Origin: Embleya hyalina
GTDB taxonomy: Bacteria; Actinomycetota; Actinomycetes; Streptomycetales; Streptomycetaceae
Assembly: GCF_003967355.1 (NCBI RefSeq)
Contig: NZ_BIFH01000030.1
Span: 149,716 to 213,715 of the forward strand
Reading direction: 5' to 3'
Length of the DNA: 64,000 nt
A program made the position numbers and the translations under genes. Below are positions 1 to 5,425 of the stretch, piece by piece (position 1 is the stretch's first letter; the number at the start of each line of letters is the position of its first letter). The notes beneath the pieces were generated by a model that ran no database searches, was not told the origin of the DNA, and saw only the letters and a list, made by a program, of their open reading frames with translations.

Positions 1-27
1 GCCGGTCGGGTCGGTCGTGCGGGACAT
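1..27 (-). CDS. 5' end of an unidentified gene (partial)
   Basis: Only the first nine codons are present (M-S-R-T-T-D-P-T-G), so no function can be given. The ATG at 27-25 has a good ribosome site just upstream on the minus strand (AGAAGGGG at about 35-42, 7 nt spacing). The start is 15 nt beyond the stop of the O-methyltransferase, so it is very probably the next gene of the same operon. Confidence 0.55.
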
Positions 28-42
28 GATCGATACCCCTTC

Positions 43-1170
43 TCAGGCCGGCGTTGCCTCGATCACCCGGAAGTCGAAGCGGGGGAGTGCGGTGACCCGG
101 GTCGTCGCGAAGCCCGTCGTGTGCAACAGGCGCCGAAACTCCTCCTCGGTACGCTCGCGGCCGCCGGTGGCGACCAGCATGTGCAGGTCCAGCAGGAGCG
201 CGGTGGCCTGCGACCGGCTGCCGGCGGTGACCGTCCCGGGCAGCGCGCGCTCCAGCAGGAACACCCGGCCCGCCGGGGGGATCACCGCGCGGATGTTGCG
301 CAGGATGGCGCCGGCTTCCTTGTCGTCCCAGTCGTGCAGGATCTGCTTGAGCAGATAGGCGTCGCAGCCCGGGGGCACCGCGGCGAAGAAGTCCCCGCTC
401 ACCACCCGTGCCCGGGCCGACACCCCGGCGGCGGCGAGCGTGTCGGCGGTGCCGGCCAGACCGGTGGGCACGTCGAACACCACACCCTCGACCTCGGGAT
501 GGGCCCGCAACACGTGCGCGACGAGGGTGCCGTCGCCGCCGCCGAGATCGACCACGGTACGAAACCGCCCGAGGTCGGCTGCGGCGATCGCCTCGGGCGC
601 CACGTCGCGGGTGTGTTCGGCCATGGCCAGGTTGAACGTCTCCGCGGCCTCGGGGTGGGCCGCGTAGTACTCGGTCCACCCCATGCCGTGGGCCAGCTCC
701 CACGGCGGCTCGCCGGTACGCACGCCGGGCACCAACTCGCCCCAGCTCCGCCAGACTTCGGGGCCGCACATCATCCGCATCAGCCCACGGATCGAGTCCG
801 GCGTGTCGGTGCGCAGCGGCTGCCCGAGCTCGGCCAGCTCGAAGCGGTCCGCGCCGACCGGGGTCAGCACCCCCAGCCCGGCCAGGGCCAGCAACAGGCG
901 GTGCAGGGACGGGCCGTGCGCGCCGAGGCGTTCGGCCAACTCGGCGCTGCTCCGCGGCCCCCCGGCGAGCAGGTCGGGGATGCCCAACTCGGCCGCCGCG
1001 TGCACCGCCTTGCCGGCCAGCACCTGCACGATCATCGCGGTGAGCCGGGCCGAGGGCGGCGGTTTCCGCCCACCTCCGCGCGGCTCGTGCCCCGCCGCGT
1101 CCTCGGACGTCGCACCCTGCGGGCCCTCGGGTCCGGCCGCGGCGCGCACGGCGTCAGCCTCCGAGCGCAT
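43..1170 (-). CDS. SAM-dependent class I O-methyltransferase (ketoreductase-cluster type)
   Basis: Predicted small-molecule O-methyltransferase of the AcnO/carminomycin-methyltransferase class. The first 40 residues are low-complexity. An N-terminal dimerisation winged-helix follows (about 45-130: LAGKAVHAAAELGIPDLL). The Rossmann domain has the SAM loop VVDLGGGDG and the catalytic-base region LKQILHDWDD, whose His normally deprotonates the hydroxyl substrate. Length (375 aa) is slightly above the usual 340-350 because of the N-terminal tail, so the true start may lie inside. The ATG overlaps the end of the acyltransferase gene by 17 nt, which implies translational coupling. The substrate is unknown; context suggests it modifies the product of the upstream three enzymes. 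Confidence 0.88.
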   Translation of the reverse strand: MRSEADAVRAAAGPEGPQGATSEDAAGHEPRGGGRKPPPSARLTAMIVQVLAGKAVHAAAELGIPDLLAGGPRSSAELAERLGAHGPSLHRLLLALAGLGVLTPVGADRFELAELGQPLRTDTPDSIRGLMRMMCGPEVWRSWGELVPGVRTGEPPWELAHGMGWTEYYAAHPEAAETFNLAMAEHTRDVAPEAIAAADLGRFRTVVDLGGGDGTLVAHVLRAHPEVEGVVFDVPTGLAGTADTLAAAGVSARARVVSGDFFAAVPPGCDAYLLKQILHDWDDKEAGAILRNIRAVIPPAGRVFLLERALPGTVTAGSRSQATALLLDLHMLVATGGRERTEEEFRRLLHTTGFATTRVTALPRFDFRVIEATPA

Positions 1171-1882
1171 CGGTCGGGCACAACGTCGATTCGGCCACGT
1201 CGGCGGCGATTCTCTTCATGGTGACCTTCCGATGGAAATAGTGGTAGCTCCGGGAGACCGCGTAATCGACGTGTTCTTTCCGGTCGGTCATGAAGTAGGT
1301 CACGTAGTCGCAGATGGTCTCGTCGCCCAGGAGATGCAGGGGCGCGTGACGTACCGGAATCGTCCCGAAGTCCACGAACATGGGCAGGATTTCGTGCCGA
1401 ATGAGCCCGGCGACGTAGTCGAAGCCCTTGGCGTGCGAAAGCAGCGCACAGTTGCGCATGATGATGCCGAGCAGGAGGTCGCCCTTGAAGGACTGTTCGA
1501 TCGCGACATTGTTGACCTCGATGATTTGCCGGCCCGCGGCGCCCGGTATCACCTCGTGGTAGATCGATTCTGGCGCGGCCGGGGTCAACCTGAAGATGGC
1601 CGCCATGCGGCCGTCGAAGGTGACCTTGTAACAACTCGAAGCCACTTCGGGCAGGAATTTATCGCGATAGATGCCGAGCGGCTTGAGCGCCTTTTCCAGA
1701 AAGTCGCGGTATTCTTCGCGTTCCTGGGTCTCGGTGATCATGCAGGTCTGGTATTTCCGCACCTCGGCCAGGACGGATTCGTCTTTCGGCGCGGCCGTGA
1801 ACGCCACCGGTGAGGTCGCCATCGCGTGGTCGGTCGGAATGCCGTCGTCCTCGGTCCGCGGCTCGTCCCGTATGCTCCTCAT
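1154..1882 (-). CDS. FeeM/LuxI-like GNAT-fold N-acyltransferase (putative)
   Basis: 242 aa. No close named family is certain, but the layout resembles autoinducer synthase / long-chain N-acyl amino acid synthase (FeeM) enzymes. A basic N-terminal half contains the CYKVTFDGRMAAIFRL strand pair. Then comes IIEVNNVAIEQSFKG, matching the E-x-x-x-x-V strand and following helix of the GNAT fold, and the helix LLLGIIMRNCALLSHAKGFDY followed by a FGTIPVRH strand. Such proteins transfer an acyl chain from acyl-ACP or acyl-CoA to an amino group. The start ATG has GAGG about 10 nt upstream. The gene begins 18 nt after the diiron oxygenase and has visibly lower GC than the flanking chromosome. Assignment rests on fold-level similarity and is tentative. 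Confidence 0.6.
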   Translation of the reverse strand: MRSIRDEPRTEDDGIPTDHAMATSPVAFTAAPKDESVLAEVRKYQTCMITETQEREEYRDFLEKALKPLGIYRDKFLPEVASSCYKVTFDGRMAAIFRLTPAAPESIYHEVIPGAAGRQIIEVNNVAIEQSFKGDLLLGIIMRNCALLSHAKGFDYVAGLIRHEILPMFVDFGTIPVRHAPLHLLGDETICDYVTYFMTDRKEHVDYAVSRSYHYFHRKVTMKRIAADVAESTLCPTDALGG

Positions 1883-1900
1883 CCCGTCGGATCCTCGACT

Positions 1901-2569
1901 CTAGGATGCGATGGGAGTGGTCAGCACATCATCGAACATCCGACTGTAGTAGTGGATCGTCATCCTCCTTCCCTGGATGACGTCGGCCATGTCGGAATCC
2001 TTCACCAGCAACTCGTCGACCGCGCGCTTCACGTCTTCGATGTGCTTGGCGTCGAATCCGCCGTGGCTCTTGATGAAGGTCACCTGATTACGTTCGAGGC
2101 CGTATCGCTCCCGGAGCACCTGCGCCATGACCTTGCCCAGCTCCGCGCCGAGGCCCTCGGTCAGGCTGGCCACGCCGAGGATGCCCACGGGGTTGCCGTA
2201 GGTGGCCATGTAGTAGTTCTGCGAGACCAGTCCCCAGGACCCGGGCTTCGGCGGCACGGCGAGTACCCGCGCCACGTCCTCGCCCAGGTTCCGCAGGTCG
2301 TTCATACAGAATTGGTCGTGATTGTTCTCCTCCTGGACCTGCTCGAAGAACCAGTCGCGCAGACCCCGGTAGTCGTCGCCGAGCCGCGCGCCGGCCAGCG
2401 ACAACATCCGCGAGGTGTGTCGCACCATGTGGTACGTCTCGCGCAGGTAGCTCACGTAATGCTCGCGTTTCATCGCGCCCCCGAGTACGAGCTCGATCAG
2501 CCCGTTCTTTTCGATCGAGGCCTTGTAGTCCTCTTCCGTCGCGGCGAGCAGGTCGTCGAAGTTGCTCAT
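1901..2569 (-). CDS. haem-oxygenase-like diiron oxygenase (HDO; TenA/PqqC-like iron redox enzyme)
   Basis: 222 aa, all-helical, the usual size of the HDO superfamily (UndA, SznF central domain, CADD and relatives). Putative metal ligands are in the expected order: H47 and/or E44 in the YLRETYH helix, E81 and H84 in EENNHD, E138 in SLTEGLG, and H169, D173 and H176 in SHGGFDAKH. Family members use O2 for N-oxygenation, oxidative C-C cleavage or desaturation of small amines and acids. The start has GGAG about 8 nt upstream. It sits between a hotdog thioesterase and a FeeM-like acyltransferase, so a fatty-acyl or amino-acid-derived substrate is plausible (inference). Confidence 0.82.
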   Translation of the reverse strand: MSNFDDLLAATEEDYKASIEKNGLIELVLGGAMKREHYVSYLRETYHMVRHTSRMLSLAGARLGDDYRGLRDWFFEQVQEENNHDQFCMNDLRNLGEDVARVLAVPPKPGSWGLVSQNYYMATYGNPVGILGVASLTEGLGAELGKVMAQVLRERYGLERNQVTFIKSHGGFDAKHIEDVKRAVDELLVKDSDMADVIQGRRMTIHYYSRMFDDVLTTPIAS

Positions 2570-2749
2570 GATCGGTGCTCCATTCGTTCCGGCGGGCTGA
2601 CGGACGGTGGTGGCGACAATCCGGCCGAGGCGGGGTTCGACCGCGGTGCGAGAGCGATGACGAAAAGCGGGACCGGAGGCGGGAACCGGGAGCGGAACGG
2701 AAACGGGAGCCGGGGCGGCGGCGCGAACGGCGACGGGGCGACGGGGCGA

Positions 2750-3196
2750 CTAACGGGTTTTCGTCGGCGGCTTCGGGAAGGGGAGAAGCCGGTAGGTGCC
2801 GATCGCCCGGGCCAGGGTCCGACCCTCCGTATCGGTCAGCCTCGCCTCCAGGAAGGCCGAGCTGTTGCCCCGCGACGTGATGTGTCCCGTGCCCAGGATC
2901 CGACCCACGGAAATCGGTTTCACGAAATCGGTGGACAGGGAGACGGTAACCGGCATGAACTCCGCGTCGGTGAGACCGACGATGGCCGAACCCATGCACT
3001 CGTCGAGCATGGCGACAATGAATCCGCCGTGCACGTTGCCGGCCGGGTTGGTGAACTCGGGAAGTGCGGTGAAGGAAAGGTGGATCGAATCCGATTTCTT
3101 GTCGAGCTCGAGCAGCGTCCAGTCGACGAGAGCGGCGACCTGCGGCAGATCCCCCAGGCGGTCGAAAACGGTCTCTTCGACGTTCGTATTCGGCAC
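2750..3196 (-). CDS. PaaI-family hotdog thioesterase
   Basis: 148 aa from the GTG at 3196, which has the ribosome site GGAAAGAAG upstream; an in-frame ATG at 3277 would add 27 residues unlike the family. The hotdog signature FTNPAGNVHGGFIVAMLDECMG (catalytic HGG plus D/E helix) and the strand VSLSTDFVKPISVG are clear. Members hydrolyse acyl-CoA or acyl-ACP thioesters, often releasing or proof-reading aromatic or fatty acyl groups. It is the first gene of the minus-strand operon and is separated from the diiron oxygenase by 180 bp of G-rich sequence with no gene visible. Role inferred: release or supply of an acyl intermediate. Confidence 0.85.
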   Translation of the reverse strand: MPNTNVEETVFDRLGDLPQVAALVDWTLLELDKKSDSIHLSFTALPEFTNPAGNVHGGFIVAMLDECMGSAIVGLTDAEFMPVTVSLSTDFVKPISVGRILGTGHITSRGNSSAFLEARLTDTEGRTLARAIGTYRLLPFPKPPTKTR

Positions 3197-3294
3197 CGGC
3201 GATTCTTCTTTCCTCGATTTTGCCGGACATTTCGCGGCTCGACTCGCGCGGCTCGCCCATGCGTCCGACCCATGCACATTCGGCCGCGCTTGTC

Positions 3295-3324
3295 AGCATG
3301 GTGAGGTCGGAGGGCGAATGTCAA
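3295..3324 (-). promoter_or_regulatory. candidate promoter of the thioesterase-HDO-acyltransferase operon
   Basis: On the minus strand a perfect -35 hexamer TTGACA (3324-3319) is followed after 18 nt by CATGCT (3300-3295). It lies about 100 nt upstream of the thioesterase GTG, in the 400-bp stretch 3197-3604 that otherwise holds only a terminator hairpin. The -10 match is modest. Confidence 0.5.
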
Positions 3325-4759: not shown

Positions 4760-5425
4760 ATGGACACGGAGCGCGGCAACAAGGGAGAACGACGTCCGTG
4801 GCTCGTCGGTGTGTCCGGGGCCTCGGGTACGCCGTACGCCGCCGCGGTGCTGCGCGCGCTGCTGGACGCCGGGGAGGCGGTGGACCTCGTGGTCAGCCGG
4901 GCCGCCCGGTTGACCCTGCTCGACGAGACCGGCACAGCGTTTCGGGACGCGCACTGGCGCGACGACCTCACCGCGTGGACCGGGCTCGACGAGGCCGCCC
5001 TCGACCGGGTCCGCTACTGGTCGGCCGGCGACCTGGGCGCGGGACCGGCGAGCGGTTCGTACCCGGCCAAGGGCATGGTCGTGGTCCCGGCCAGCACCGC
5101 CTCGGTCGCGGGCATCGCCATCGGCCTGTCCAAGGACCTGCTCCAGCGCGCCGCCGACGTCACGCTCAAGGAGCGCCGTCCGCTCGTGGTCGTGCCGCGC
5201 GAGACGCCGCTGACCGGCACCACGCTGCGCCACCTGGTCCGCCTCGACGACGCCGGCGCGGTGATCCTGCCGGCCTCCCCGGCCTTCTACGCGGGTGCGC
5301 AGGACGTACAGCGCCTGGTCGACTTCGTCGCGGGCAAGGTGCTGGACGTGCTCGGCGTCCACCACGACCTGTACCGGCGCTGGGACGGCGAACTCGGCGG
5401 CGCCCGACGCGAGGCGACCGGATGA
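4760..5425 (+). CDS. ubiX: UbiX-type flavin prenyltransferase
   Basis: 221 aa. Makes prenylated FMN from FMN and dimethylallyl phosphate, the cofactor of UbiD-type decarboxylases. The FMN-binding loop GVSGASGT is at 17-24, PAKGMVVVPASTASVAGIAIG and the conserved VPRETPL and ILPASPAFY motifs follow. No UbiD gene is in the window, but mqnE is 2 kb downstream, and a UbiX/UbiD pair completes the futalosine menaquinone route, so that is the likely pathway. No Shine-Dalgarno is visible; a -10-like GACAAT ends 6 nt before the ATG, compatible with a leaderless mRNA. The stop overlaps a small cationic ORF. Confidence 0.92.
   Translation: MDTERGNKGERRPWLVGVSGASGTPYAAAVLRALLDAGEAVDLVVSRAARLTLLDETGTAFRDAHWRDDLTAWTGLDEAALDRVRYWSAGDLGAGPASGSYPAKGMVVVPASTASVAGIAIGLSKDLLQRAADVTLKERRPLVVVPRETPLTGTTLRHLVRLDDAGAVILPASPAFYAGAQDVQRLVDFVAGKVLDVLGVHHDLYRRWDGELGGARREATG

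What the first reader, a model, noticed from the sequence alone, without database searches (positions are those of the whole stretch)
1..3324. Thioesterase - diiron oxygenase - FeeM-like acyltransferase - methyltransferase operon
Five consecutive minus-strand genes, closely spaced or overlapping, combine a hotdog thioesterase, a haem-oxygenase-like diiron protein with a full ligand set (H47, E81, H84, E138, H169, H176), a LuxI/FeeM-like N-acyltransferase and an O-methyltransferase. HDO enzymes perform unusual N-oxygenation, C-C cleavage or desaturation. Paired with an acyl-amine-forming enzyme this suggests an oxidised, methylated N-acyl product, perhaps a signal. I know of no characterised pathway with this exact set. 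The chemistry is inference; the gene order is seen.
Basis: partly seen in the sequence, partly recalled or inferred. Interest (0 to 1): 0.75.

Follow-up and report, generated by a model that had tools for sequence, protein, structure and literature searches.

The report
Mobile four-gene acyl-oxidising biosynthetic cassette
A small set of four genes that seems to travel as one unit between soil actinomycetes probably makes an oxidised, methylated fatty-acyl compound by pairing an iron enzyme with a distant relative of the enzymes that make bacterial signalling lipids; its product is unknown.

Summary
Four complete minus-strand genes (hotdog thioesterase, haem-oxygenase-like diiron protein or HDO, FeeM/LuxI-like acyltransferase, O-methyltransferase) stand at window 43-3196. 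A fifth, flavin monooxygenase-like, starts at base 27; an AurF-like diiron gene follows off-window. The four keep their order in 7 of 7 loci of the close acyltransferase family, in three named genera and the window's own unnamed genus, with unlike flanks. Gene trees put Actinoallomurus with the window's genus, away from Actinomadura of its own family, so the cassette probably moves as a unit. The acyltransferase matches no Pfam family, but profile comparison with PF21926 FeeM proteins is well above its controls, and Foldseek ranks FeeM first on a poor model. Relatives of this HDO occur near FeeM proteins, KAS III, AMP-ligases and hotdog thioesterases. Best reading: an orphan pathway for an oxidised, O-methylated N-acyl metabolite. 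The chemistry is inferred; ten paper searches listed nothing on it.

The parts
2750..3196 (-). hotdog-fold (4HBT, PaaI-type) thioesterase, 148 aa from GTG at 3196 (ORF open to 3277)
   Evidence: PF03061 E 3.5e-16, TIGR00369 43.1 bits against cut-off 36.6; motif N..G..HGG.....LD in 7 of 7 loci
1901..2569 (-). haem-oxygenase-like diiron oxidase/oxygenase (HDO), 222 aa; ligands E81, H84, E138, H169, D173, H176
   Evidence: PF14518 E 8.8e-22; PDB 3dde E 1.3e-26, CADD (1rcw) 0.003; Foldseek 3dde TM 0.75, CtCADD TM 0.77; ligands invariant in 8 of 8
1154..1882 (-). divergent FeeM/LuxI-like (GNAT-fold) acyltransferase, 242 aa
   Evidence: No Pfam family; hhalign to two PF21926-positive proteins prob 79%, E 1.6e-5, score 41.8 against a shuffled maximum of 24.2; Foldseek best hit FeeM 2g0b E 1.2e-3 on a pLDDT-45 model
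43..1170 (-). SAM-dependent O-methyltransferase with dimerisation domain, 375 aa; LHDW and D-x-GGG-x-G motifs
   Evidence: PF00891 E 4.1e-46, PF08100; nearest solved CalO6 E 7.4e-86, then 6c5b, AlpH, DtpM, MmcR; motifs in 7 of 7
1..27 (-). first nine codons of a flavin monooxygenase-like (acyl-CoA dehydrogenase fold) gene, complete as L004:14523-15743 (406 aa)
   Evidence: PF08028 E 4.4e-21; nearest solved Rv3094c, then 3-HSA hydroxylase; XiaF and DszC further down

Best explanation
The genes form an orphan biosynthetic cassette, probably transferred as one unit, that makes a small oxidised, O-methylated acyl metabolite. Shown: gene content, order, conservation, HDO ligands, remote FeeM homology, a shared tree split that conflicts with taxonomy. 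Inferred: the FeeM-like enzyme takes an acyl chain from ACP or CoA and attaches it to an amine (amino acid or amine); the HDO, with O2 and a diiron centre, oxidises this product or its amine precursor (N-hydroxylation, or desaturation/decarboxylation next to a carboxylate bound to iron); the O-methyltransferase caps the new hydroxyl or enol; the hotdog thioesterase edits or releases acyl thioesters. Flavin monooxygenase and AurF-like enzymes may add further oxidation in some lineages.
For: Same four genes in the same order in 7 of 7 loci of the close acyltransferase family. The divergent eighth, L034, keeps HDO (44%) and FeeM-like (28%) side by side with a KAS III, a hotdog thioesterase and an MFS protein. 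Two further loci with a related HDO carry PF21926 FeeM proteins above the Pfam cut-off (E 1.3e-12 and 2.1e-10), three genes from the HDO, and an AMP-ligase (L059, L060). A third has KAS III fused to the HDO (L061). The HDO ligand set is complete. FeeM homology stands above controls. All four gene trees hold the split window genus + Actinoallomurus against Streptomyces + Actinomadura (support 0.525 TE, 0.987 HDO, 0.582 FeeM, 0.998 OMT), against taxonomy.
Against: No product, assay or expression data. No carrier protein, amine-forming enzyme or regulator in the cassette itself, so substrates are unknown. The E-x-x-R signature of FeeM/LuxI is not kept (E/Q-V-N-N). The best PDB sequence match of the acyltransferase profile is a protein called simply acetyltransferase. 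Its AlphaFold model is poor (pLDDT 45) and no Foldseek match reaches E 0.001. No O-methyltransferase gene was called in L034, so methylation may not be common to the wider group. The AurF-like gene is common without the cassette (41 of 59 family genomes other than the two cassette ones; 4 of 5 of the Actinomadura family). Of 13 other HDO hits only 4 neighbourhoods were opened, one of them (L062) without a clear pattern.
Confidence: 0.5

Rival explanations
1. The HDO acts on a free fatty acid released by the thioesterase (as UndA does, making an alkene), and the FeeM-like enzyme then transfers the modified chain; oxidation precedes acyl transfer and nitrogen is never oxidised.
For: Acyl-thioester enzymes recur around relatives of this HDO: hotdog thioesterase, KAS III (also fused), AMP-ligases. 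The HDO review (PMC13108848, passages) gives fatty acid decarboxylation (UndA) and sequential desaturation (MboA) as HDO reactions.
Against: Among solved structures the nearest characterised HDO by sequence is CADD (E 0.003); no chain named UndA is among the 6 hits up to E 10. The chain specificity of the thioesterase is untested.
Confidence: 0.25
2. The FeeM-like protein is an ordinary GNAT acetyltransferase or a non-catalytic partner of the HDO, so the product is not a long-chain N-acyl compound.
For: Best PDB sequence match to the profile is named acetyltransferase (6g96, E 0.0027); no Pfam FeeM or Autoind_synth match; signature residues changed; divergent L034 member shows only a weak GNAT match, PF13508 E 0.066.
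Against: Profile match to PF21926 proteins with 0 of 100 column shuffles reaching the score; the first 13 Foldseek rows are FeeM or AHL synthases, ahead of GNATs.
Confidence: 0.2
3. The genes are merely adjacent and do not form one pathway.
For: 180-base gap between thioesterase and HDO in the window and 228 in L012; flavin and AurF-like genes are variable.
Against: Order kept in 7 of 7 loci in three named genera plus the window's own, with different flanks; FeeM and OMT genes overlap or lie at most 6 bases apart in 7 of 7; shared tree split.
Confidence: 0.04

Closest known systems
FeeM N-acyl amino acid synthase (PF21926; PDB 2g0b)
   Same: Remote profile homology and top-ranked fold match on a poor model; bona fide PF21926 proteins sit three genes from related HDOs in L059 and L060
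   Different: Below Pfam detection; E-C-Q-R of those FeeM proteins is E/Q-V-N-N here
HDO superfamily: 3dde (Shewanella, function unknown), CADD/pABA synthase, UndA, SznF
   Same: Fold and the 3H/3C ligand set
   Different: 24% (3dde) and 16% (CADD) identity in the fold match; here it stands beside a FeeM-like acyltransferase and an O-methyltransferase
Proteobacterial operon: thermostable hemolysin (PF12261) - AMP-binding - HDO - SDR - hypothetical/TPR
   Same: Related HDO (hhalign 99.75%), same ligand motifs in 5 of 5, AMP-ligase for acyl activation
   Different: PF12261 (checked by Pfam in 1 of 5) is not convincingly similar to the FeeM-like protein (prob 4%; 0 of 100 shuffles reach its score but the reversed control comes close) nor to the PF21926 proteins (prob 0.4%); no O-methyltransferase or hotdog thioesterase is annotated in those operons
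Azodyrecin/valanimycin aliphatic azoxy clusters (PMC9379638, passages)
   Same: Flavin monooxygenase, ferritin-like protein and methyltransferase around aliphatic nitrogen chemistry
   Different: No VlmA- or VlmO-like protein among the neighbours scanned with Pfam. A class III aminotransferase and an aldehyde dehydrogenase lie upstream of the cassette in L007 only, about 3 kb off. The terms heme oxygenase, N-acyltransferase and thioesterase do not occur in that paper's main text

Membership tests
HDO, 3H/3C | Haem-oxygenase-like fold / PF14518 | tested here: met
   PF14518 78.2 bits against cut-off 28.9; Foldseek 3dde E 1.1e-6, CtCADD TM 0.77 (model pLDDT 61.6)
HDO, 3H/3C | Three His and three carboxylates on core helices | tested here: met
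   E81, H84, E138, H169, D173, H176 invariant in 8 of 8; motifs E..HD, TEG, H...D..H in 7 of 7
HDO, 3H/3C | Binds two metals and activates O2 | not testable with these tools
   needs protein
FeeM N-acyl amino acid synthase (PF21926) | Reaches the Pfam cut-off | tested here: not met
   0 families at E<=1 for the window protein and for 3 of 3 close homologues scanned
FeeM N-acyl amino acid synthase (PF21926) | Remote homology to PF21926 proteins | tested here: met
   hhalign A3 v A7 prob 79%, E 1.6e-5, score 41.8; 0 of 100 column shuffles reach it (maximum 24.2), reversed profile 14.3
FeeM/LuxI signature | E-x-x-R on the central strand (motif recalled; E-C-Q-R seen in L059/L060) | tested here: not met
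   E-V-N-N in 5 of 7, Q-V-N-N in 2 of 7
FeeM N-acyl amino acid synthase (PF21926) | Uses acyl-ACP and an amino acid | not testable with these tools
   needs assay
LuxI autoinducer synthase (PF00765) | Pfam match | tested here: not met
   no match at E<=1
Methyltransf_2 O-methyltransferase | Catalytic and dimerisation domains, SAM motif, HDW base | tested here: met
   PF00891, PF08100; DxGGGxG and LHDW in 7 of 7; role of these motifs recalled
PaaI-type hotdog thioesterase | 4HBT domain and HGG/D active-site motif (motif recalled) | tested here: met
Class D flavin monooxygenase (fifth gene) | Acyl-CoA dehydrogenase fold with PF08028 C-domain, nearest solved relatives mostly hydroxylases | tested here: met
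   activity untested
AurF N-oxygenase (sixth gene) | PF11583 | tested here: met
   E 1e-16; no solved structure at E<=0.01

The most novel reading that the evidence does not exclude
FeeM/LuxI-type acyltransferase plus HDO is a recurring two-enzyme core that makes a class of O2-derived N-acyl metabolites in several unrelated operon designs across Actinomycetota, with a Pseudomonadota version in which the protein annotated thermostable hemolysin (PF12261) is really the acyltransferase partner of the HDO.
Probability: 0.25. Interest if true: 0.75.

Novelty: new variant of a known kind. Interest (0 to 1): 0.5.

Why it matters
Only about a dozen HDOs have a known reaction (PMC13108848, passages), and several of those reactions had no precedent among diiron catalysts. 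This cassette is four genes long and apparently mobile, so it is easy to express whole, and it ties an HDO to a FeeM-like acyltransferase, which narrows the likely substrates. If the wider pairing holds, it would also give a testable biosynthetic role to proteobacterial genes now labelled thermostable hemolysin.

Tried and rejected
Azoxy/valanimycin reading: considered because a flavin monooxygenase and a ferritin-like AurF protein follow the cassette. Dropped as main reading: no VlmA or VlmO equivalent among the neighbours scanned with Pfam; the AurF-like gene lies on another contig in 4 of the 7 cassette genomes and is common without the cassette. A class III aminotransferase does lie near the cassette in L007.

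AurF as a fixed part: mixed. It adjoins the cassette in L004, L012 and L008. The copies in the window's genus (77-78%) and next to the Streptomyces cassette (82-84%) are closer to the Actinomadura copies than to the second Streptomyces copy (61 and 64%), and two same-genus genomes without a FeeM hit have only 58-59% versions, so it may have come along with the cassette. Against that, 72-73% copies occur in 2 of 5 cassette-free genomes of the Actinomadura family.

Thermostable hemolysin as a homologue of the FeeM-like protein: score 24.4, 0 of 100 shuffles reach it (maximum 23.6) but the reversed control gives 22.4, probability 4%, and it shows nothing against the PF21926 proteins (probability 0.4%); not accepted.

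Literature: ten searches. In the titles and abstract starts listed I saw no paper on this gene set or on an HDO-FeeM pair; some lists were capped (25 of 330, 15 of 1,330), two searches found no paper, and most subscription journals are not held. Read were passages only of PMC9379638, PMC13232832 and PMC13108848. Plasmid search with the FeeM-like protein: no match.

The fold search on the acyltransferase used a model of pLDDT 45, where matches are formally unreliable (TM 0.25-0.32 for FeeM); I use only its rank order, as support for the profile result.
Full report
What is there. The window begins inside an operon on the minus strand. Four genes are complete in it: hotdog thioesterase (2750-3196), HDO (1901-2569), FeeM-like protein (1154-1882) and O-methyltransferase (43-1170). 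Extending the contig leftwards (window base 1 = L004:15717) gives a fifth gene, a flavin monooxygenase-like protein of the acyl-CoA dehydrogenase fold (L004:14523-15743; PF08028; nearest solved Rv3094c, then 3-HSA hydroxylase), and a sixth, an AurF-like diiron protein (L004:13379-14482; PF11583; no solved relative at E<=0.01). Gaps are 180, 18 and -17, then 15 and 40 bases (coordinates).

Is it conserved? The FeeM-like protein is rare: 2 of 297 genomes of the window's family including its own, 1 of 396 in a phylum sample, its own, 5 of 341 in the family of the Actinomadura locus (4 close, 1 divergent), and 1 of 394 in a class sample, its own, with a profile; these samples overlap. A scan of genome contigs gave 39 pattern matches and 5 relatives (exact patterns from one sequence, so divergent members are missed). 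All 7 close loci (window, the same-genus genome G004 = L012, Actinoallomurus soli L007, Streptomyces sp. WAC05374 L008, Actinomadura L009, L010, L011) hold thioesterase, HDO, FeeM-like and O-methyltransferase in that order. HDOs are 76-98% and FeeM-like proteins 59-94% identical to the window's. HDO-FeeM gaps are 18, 18, 0 and 43 bases in the window, L012, L007 and L008; in L009-L011 I aligned stretches without fixing the FeeM start, so their HDO-FeeM values are not real gaps. FeeM-OMT runs from a 17-base overlap to a 6-base gap in 7 of 7. Flanking genes differ between genera; the three Actinomadura loci share some flanks. The flavin gene is present in L004, L012 and L007; a second hotdog thioesterase in L008, L010 and L011.

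Does it move? FastTree trees of the four proteins, read without a root, all hold the split window genus + Actinoallomurus against Streptomyces + Actinomadura (support 0.525 thioesterase, 0.987 HDO, 0.582 FeeM-like, 0.998 O-methyltransferase; the two low values lie near the long L034 branch). Actinoallomurus and Actinomadura are one family, and the window's genome, which has the gene, is not among the hits in the 341 held genomes of that family. The simplest reading is transfer of the whole cassette; old paralogy is not excluded. In the window's operon GC at third positions is lower in thioesterase, FeeM-like and HDO genes (0.79, 0.83, 0.89) than in the later genes (0.93-0.98), which fits but does not prove foreign origin.

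The HDO. The fold is secure. The 3H/3C set that defines most HDOs (PMC13108848, passages) is E81, H84, E138, H169, D173, H176, invariant in 8 of 8 including the 44% relative. Five of the six line up with like residues of CADD in the printed alignment; the first carboxylate sits three residues before the histidine, as in 3dde and in the proteobacterial relatives.

The acyltransferase. Library searches give nothing. Three lines support FeeM kinship. First, AlphaFold gives a GNAT-like order of elements at low confidence (pLDDT 45), and Foldseek puts FeeM first (E 1.2e-3, probability 0.98); rows 1-13 are FeeM or AHL synthases, ahead of GNAT acetyltransferases. No match reaches E 0.001 and TM-scores are low. 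Second, hhalign against two FeeM proteins that pass the PF21926 cut-off gives probability 79% and score 41.8; 100 column shuffles reach at most 24.2 and the reversed profile 14.3; two HDO profiles used as negative controls lie within their own shuffles (5 and 35 of 100 at or above the observed score). Third, those two FeeM proteins stand three genes from an HDO related to this one (L059, L060). Against: the best PDB sequence match is named acetyltransferase, and the E-x-x-R motif is E/Q-V-N-N. I therefore call it FeeM-like, not a member of PF21926.

The wider pattern. Relatives of this HDO were followed. L034 (G696): HDO, FeeM-like, KAS III, hotdog thioesterase, MFS protein. L059 and L060 (G698, G001; HDO profile E 1.2e-44 and 1.3e-46): FeeM, flavin halogenase-like, CMD, a ferritin-like protein (AurF match below the cut-off), HDO, AMP-ligase, then a hydrolase-like gene judged by eye and a weak blastp match (Pfam run on the L059 members other than the hydrolase, and on the FeeM and HDO of L060). 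L061 (G875): KAS III-HDO fusion, DUF6999, and on the other strand a gene with blastp similarity to the cassette thioesterases. L062 (G061) gave no clear pattern. The searches behind these gave 10 of 298 and 8 of 200 genomes with an HDO hit at E<=1e-12; I opened the neighbourhoods of 4 of the 13 hits that were not already cassette or L034 loci, so how often the pairing fails is not known. In Pseudomonadota and other plasmids 28 records have a 21-29% relative; I opened 5 of 28, and 5 of 5 show an annotated thermostable hemolysin, AMP-binding protein, HDO, SDR and one further gene annotated hypothetical or TPR (PF12261 checked in one, TPR repeats in 2 of 2 tested). The common thread is HDO plus acyl-thioester chemistry and, in the cassette, L034 and L059/L060, a FeeM-type protein.

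Mechanism. My best reading is N-acyl formation by the FeeM-like enzyme, O2-dependent oxidation by the HDO, and O-methylation, with thioesterase editing. Every catalytic step is inferred from family. The main rival is oxidation of a free fatty acid before acyl transfer. The methyltransferase family (nearest solved CalO6, then 6c5b, AlpH, DtpM, MmcR) methylates hydroxyls of varied small molecules (recalled), which does not choose between an N-hydroxyl, an enol or a phenol.

Known or new. Ten paper searches listed nothing on this set (limits in Tried and rejected). I rate it a new variant of a known kind, a compact orphan biosynthetic cassette, and a good candidate for a new HDO reaction. It is not shown to be a signal system.

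Noticed in passing
L004:7343-13227 (left of the window, G000:C30): A low-GC3 stretch with a PglX/type IIG restriction-methyltransferase (PADLOC PglX 1375 bits) and a DUF4276 (HEC-01B-like) gene lies between the operon and a UbiD gene; its called genes have no blastp match in the same-genus locus L012.
   Followed up: partly
L004:4827-6278 and window 4760-5425: UbiD and UbiX genes lie on the two sides of the cassette region, with an AsnC/Lrp regulator at window 5851; the cassette seems to sit in a decarboxylase region.
   Followed up: no
L059:7738-13537 (minus) and L060:5809-11721 (plus): A second orphan cluster in genomes of two actinomycete families: FeeM, flavin halogenase-like, CMD, ferritin-like, HDO, AMP-ligase, followed by a hydrolase-like gene.
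   Followed up: partly
L036-L040: Proteobacterial operon of annotated thermostable hemolysin, AMP-ligase, HDO, SDR and a hypothetical/TPR gene on plasmids of Variovorax, Pseudoalteromonas (two), Citrobacter and Pantoea; the hemolysin label looks doubtful in a biosynthetic-looking operon.
   Followed up: partly
L061:6626-8563: KAS III fused to an HDO domain in one 645-aa ORF, next to a DUF6999 gene.
   Followed up: no
L008:14219-19469; L011:12976-16010: TIR and NB-ARC/TPR proteins, possibly defence, downstream of the Streptomyces cassette; McrBC-type and AAA genes downstream of the cassette in L011.
   Followed up: no
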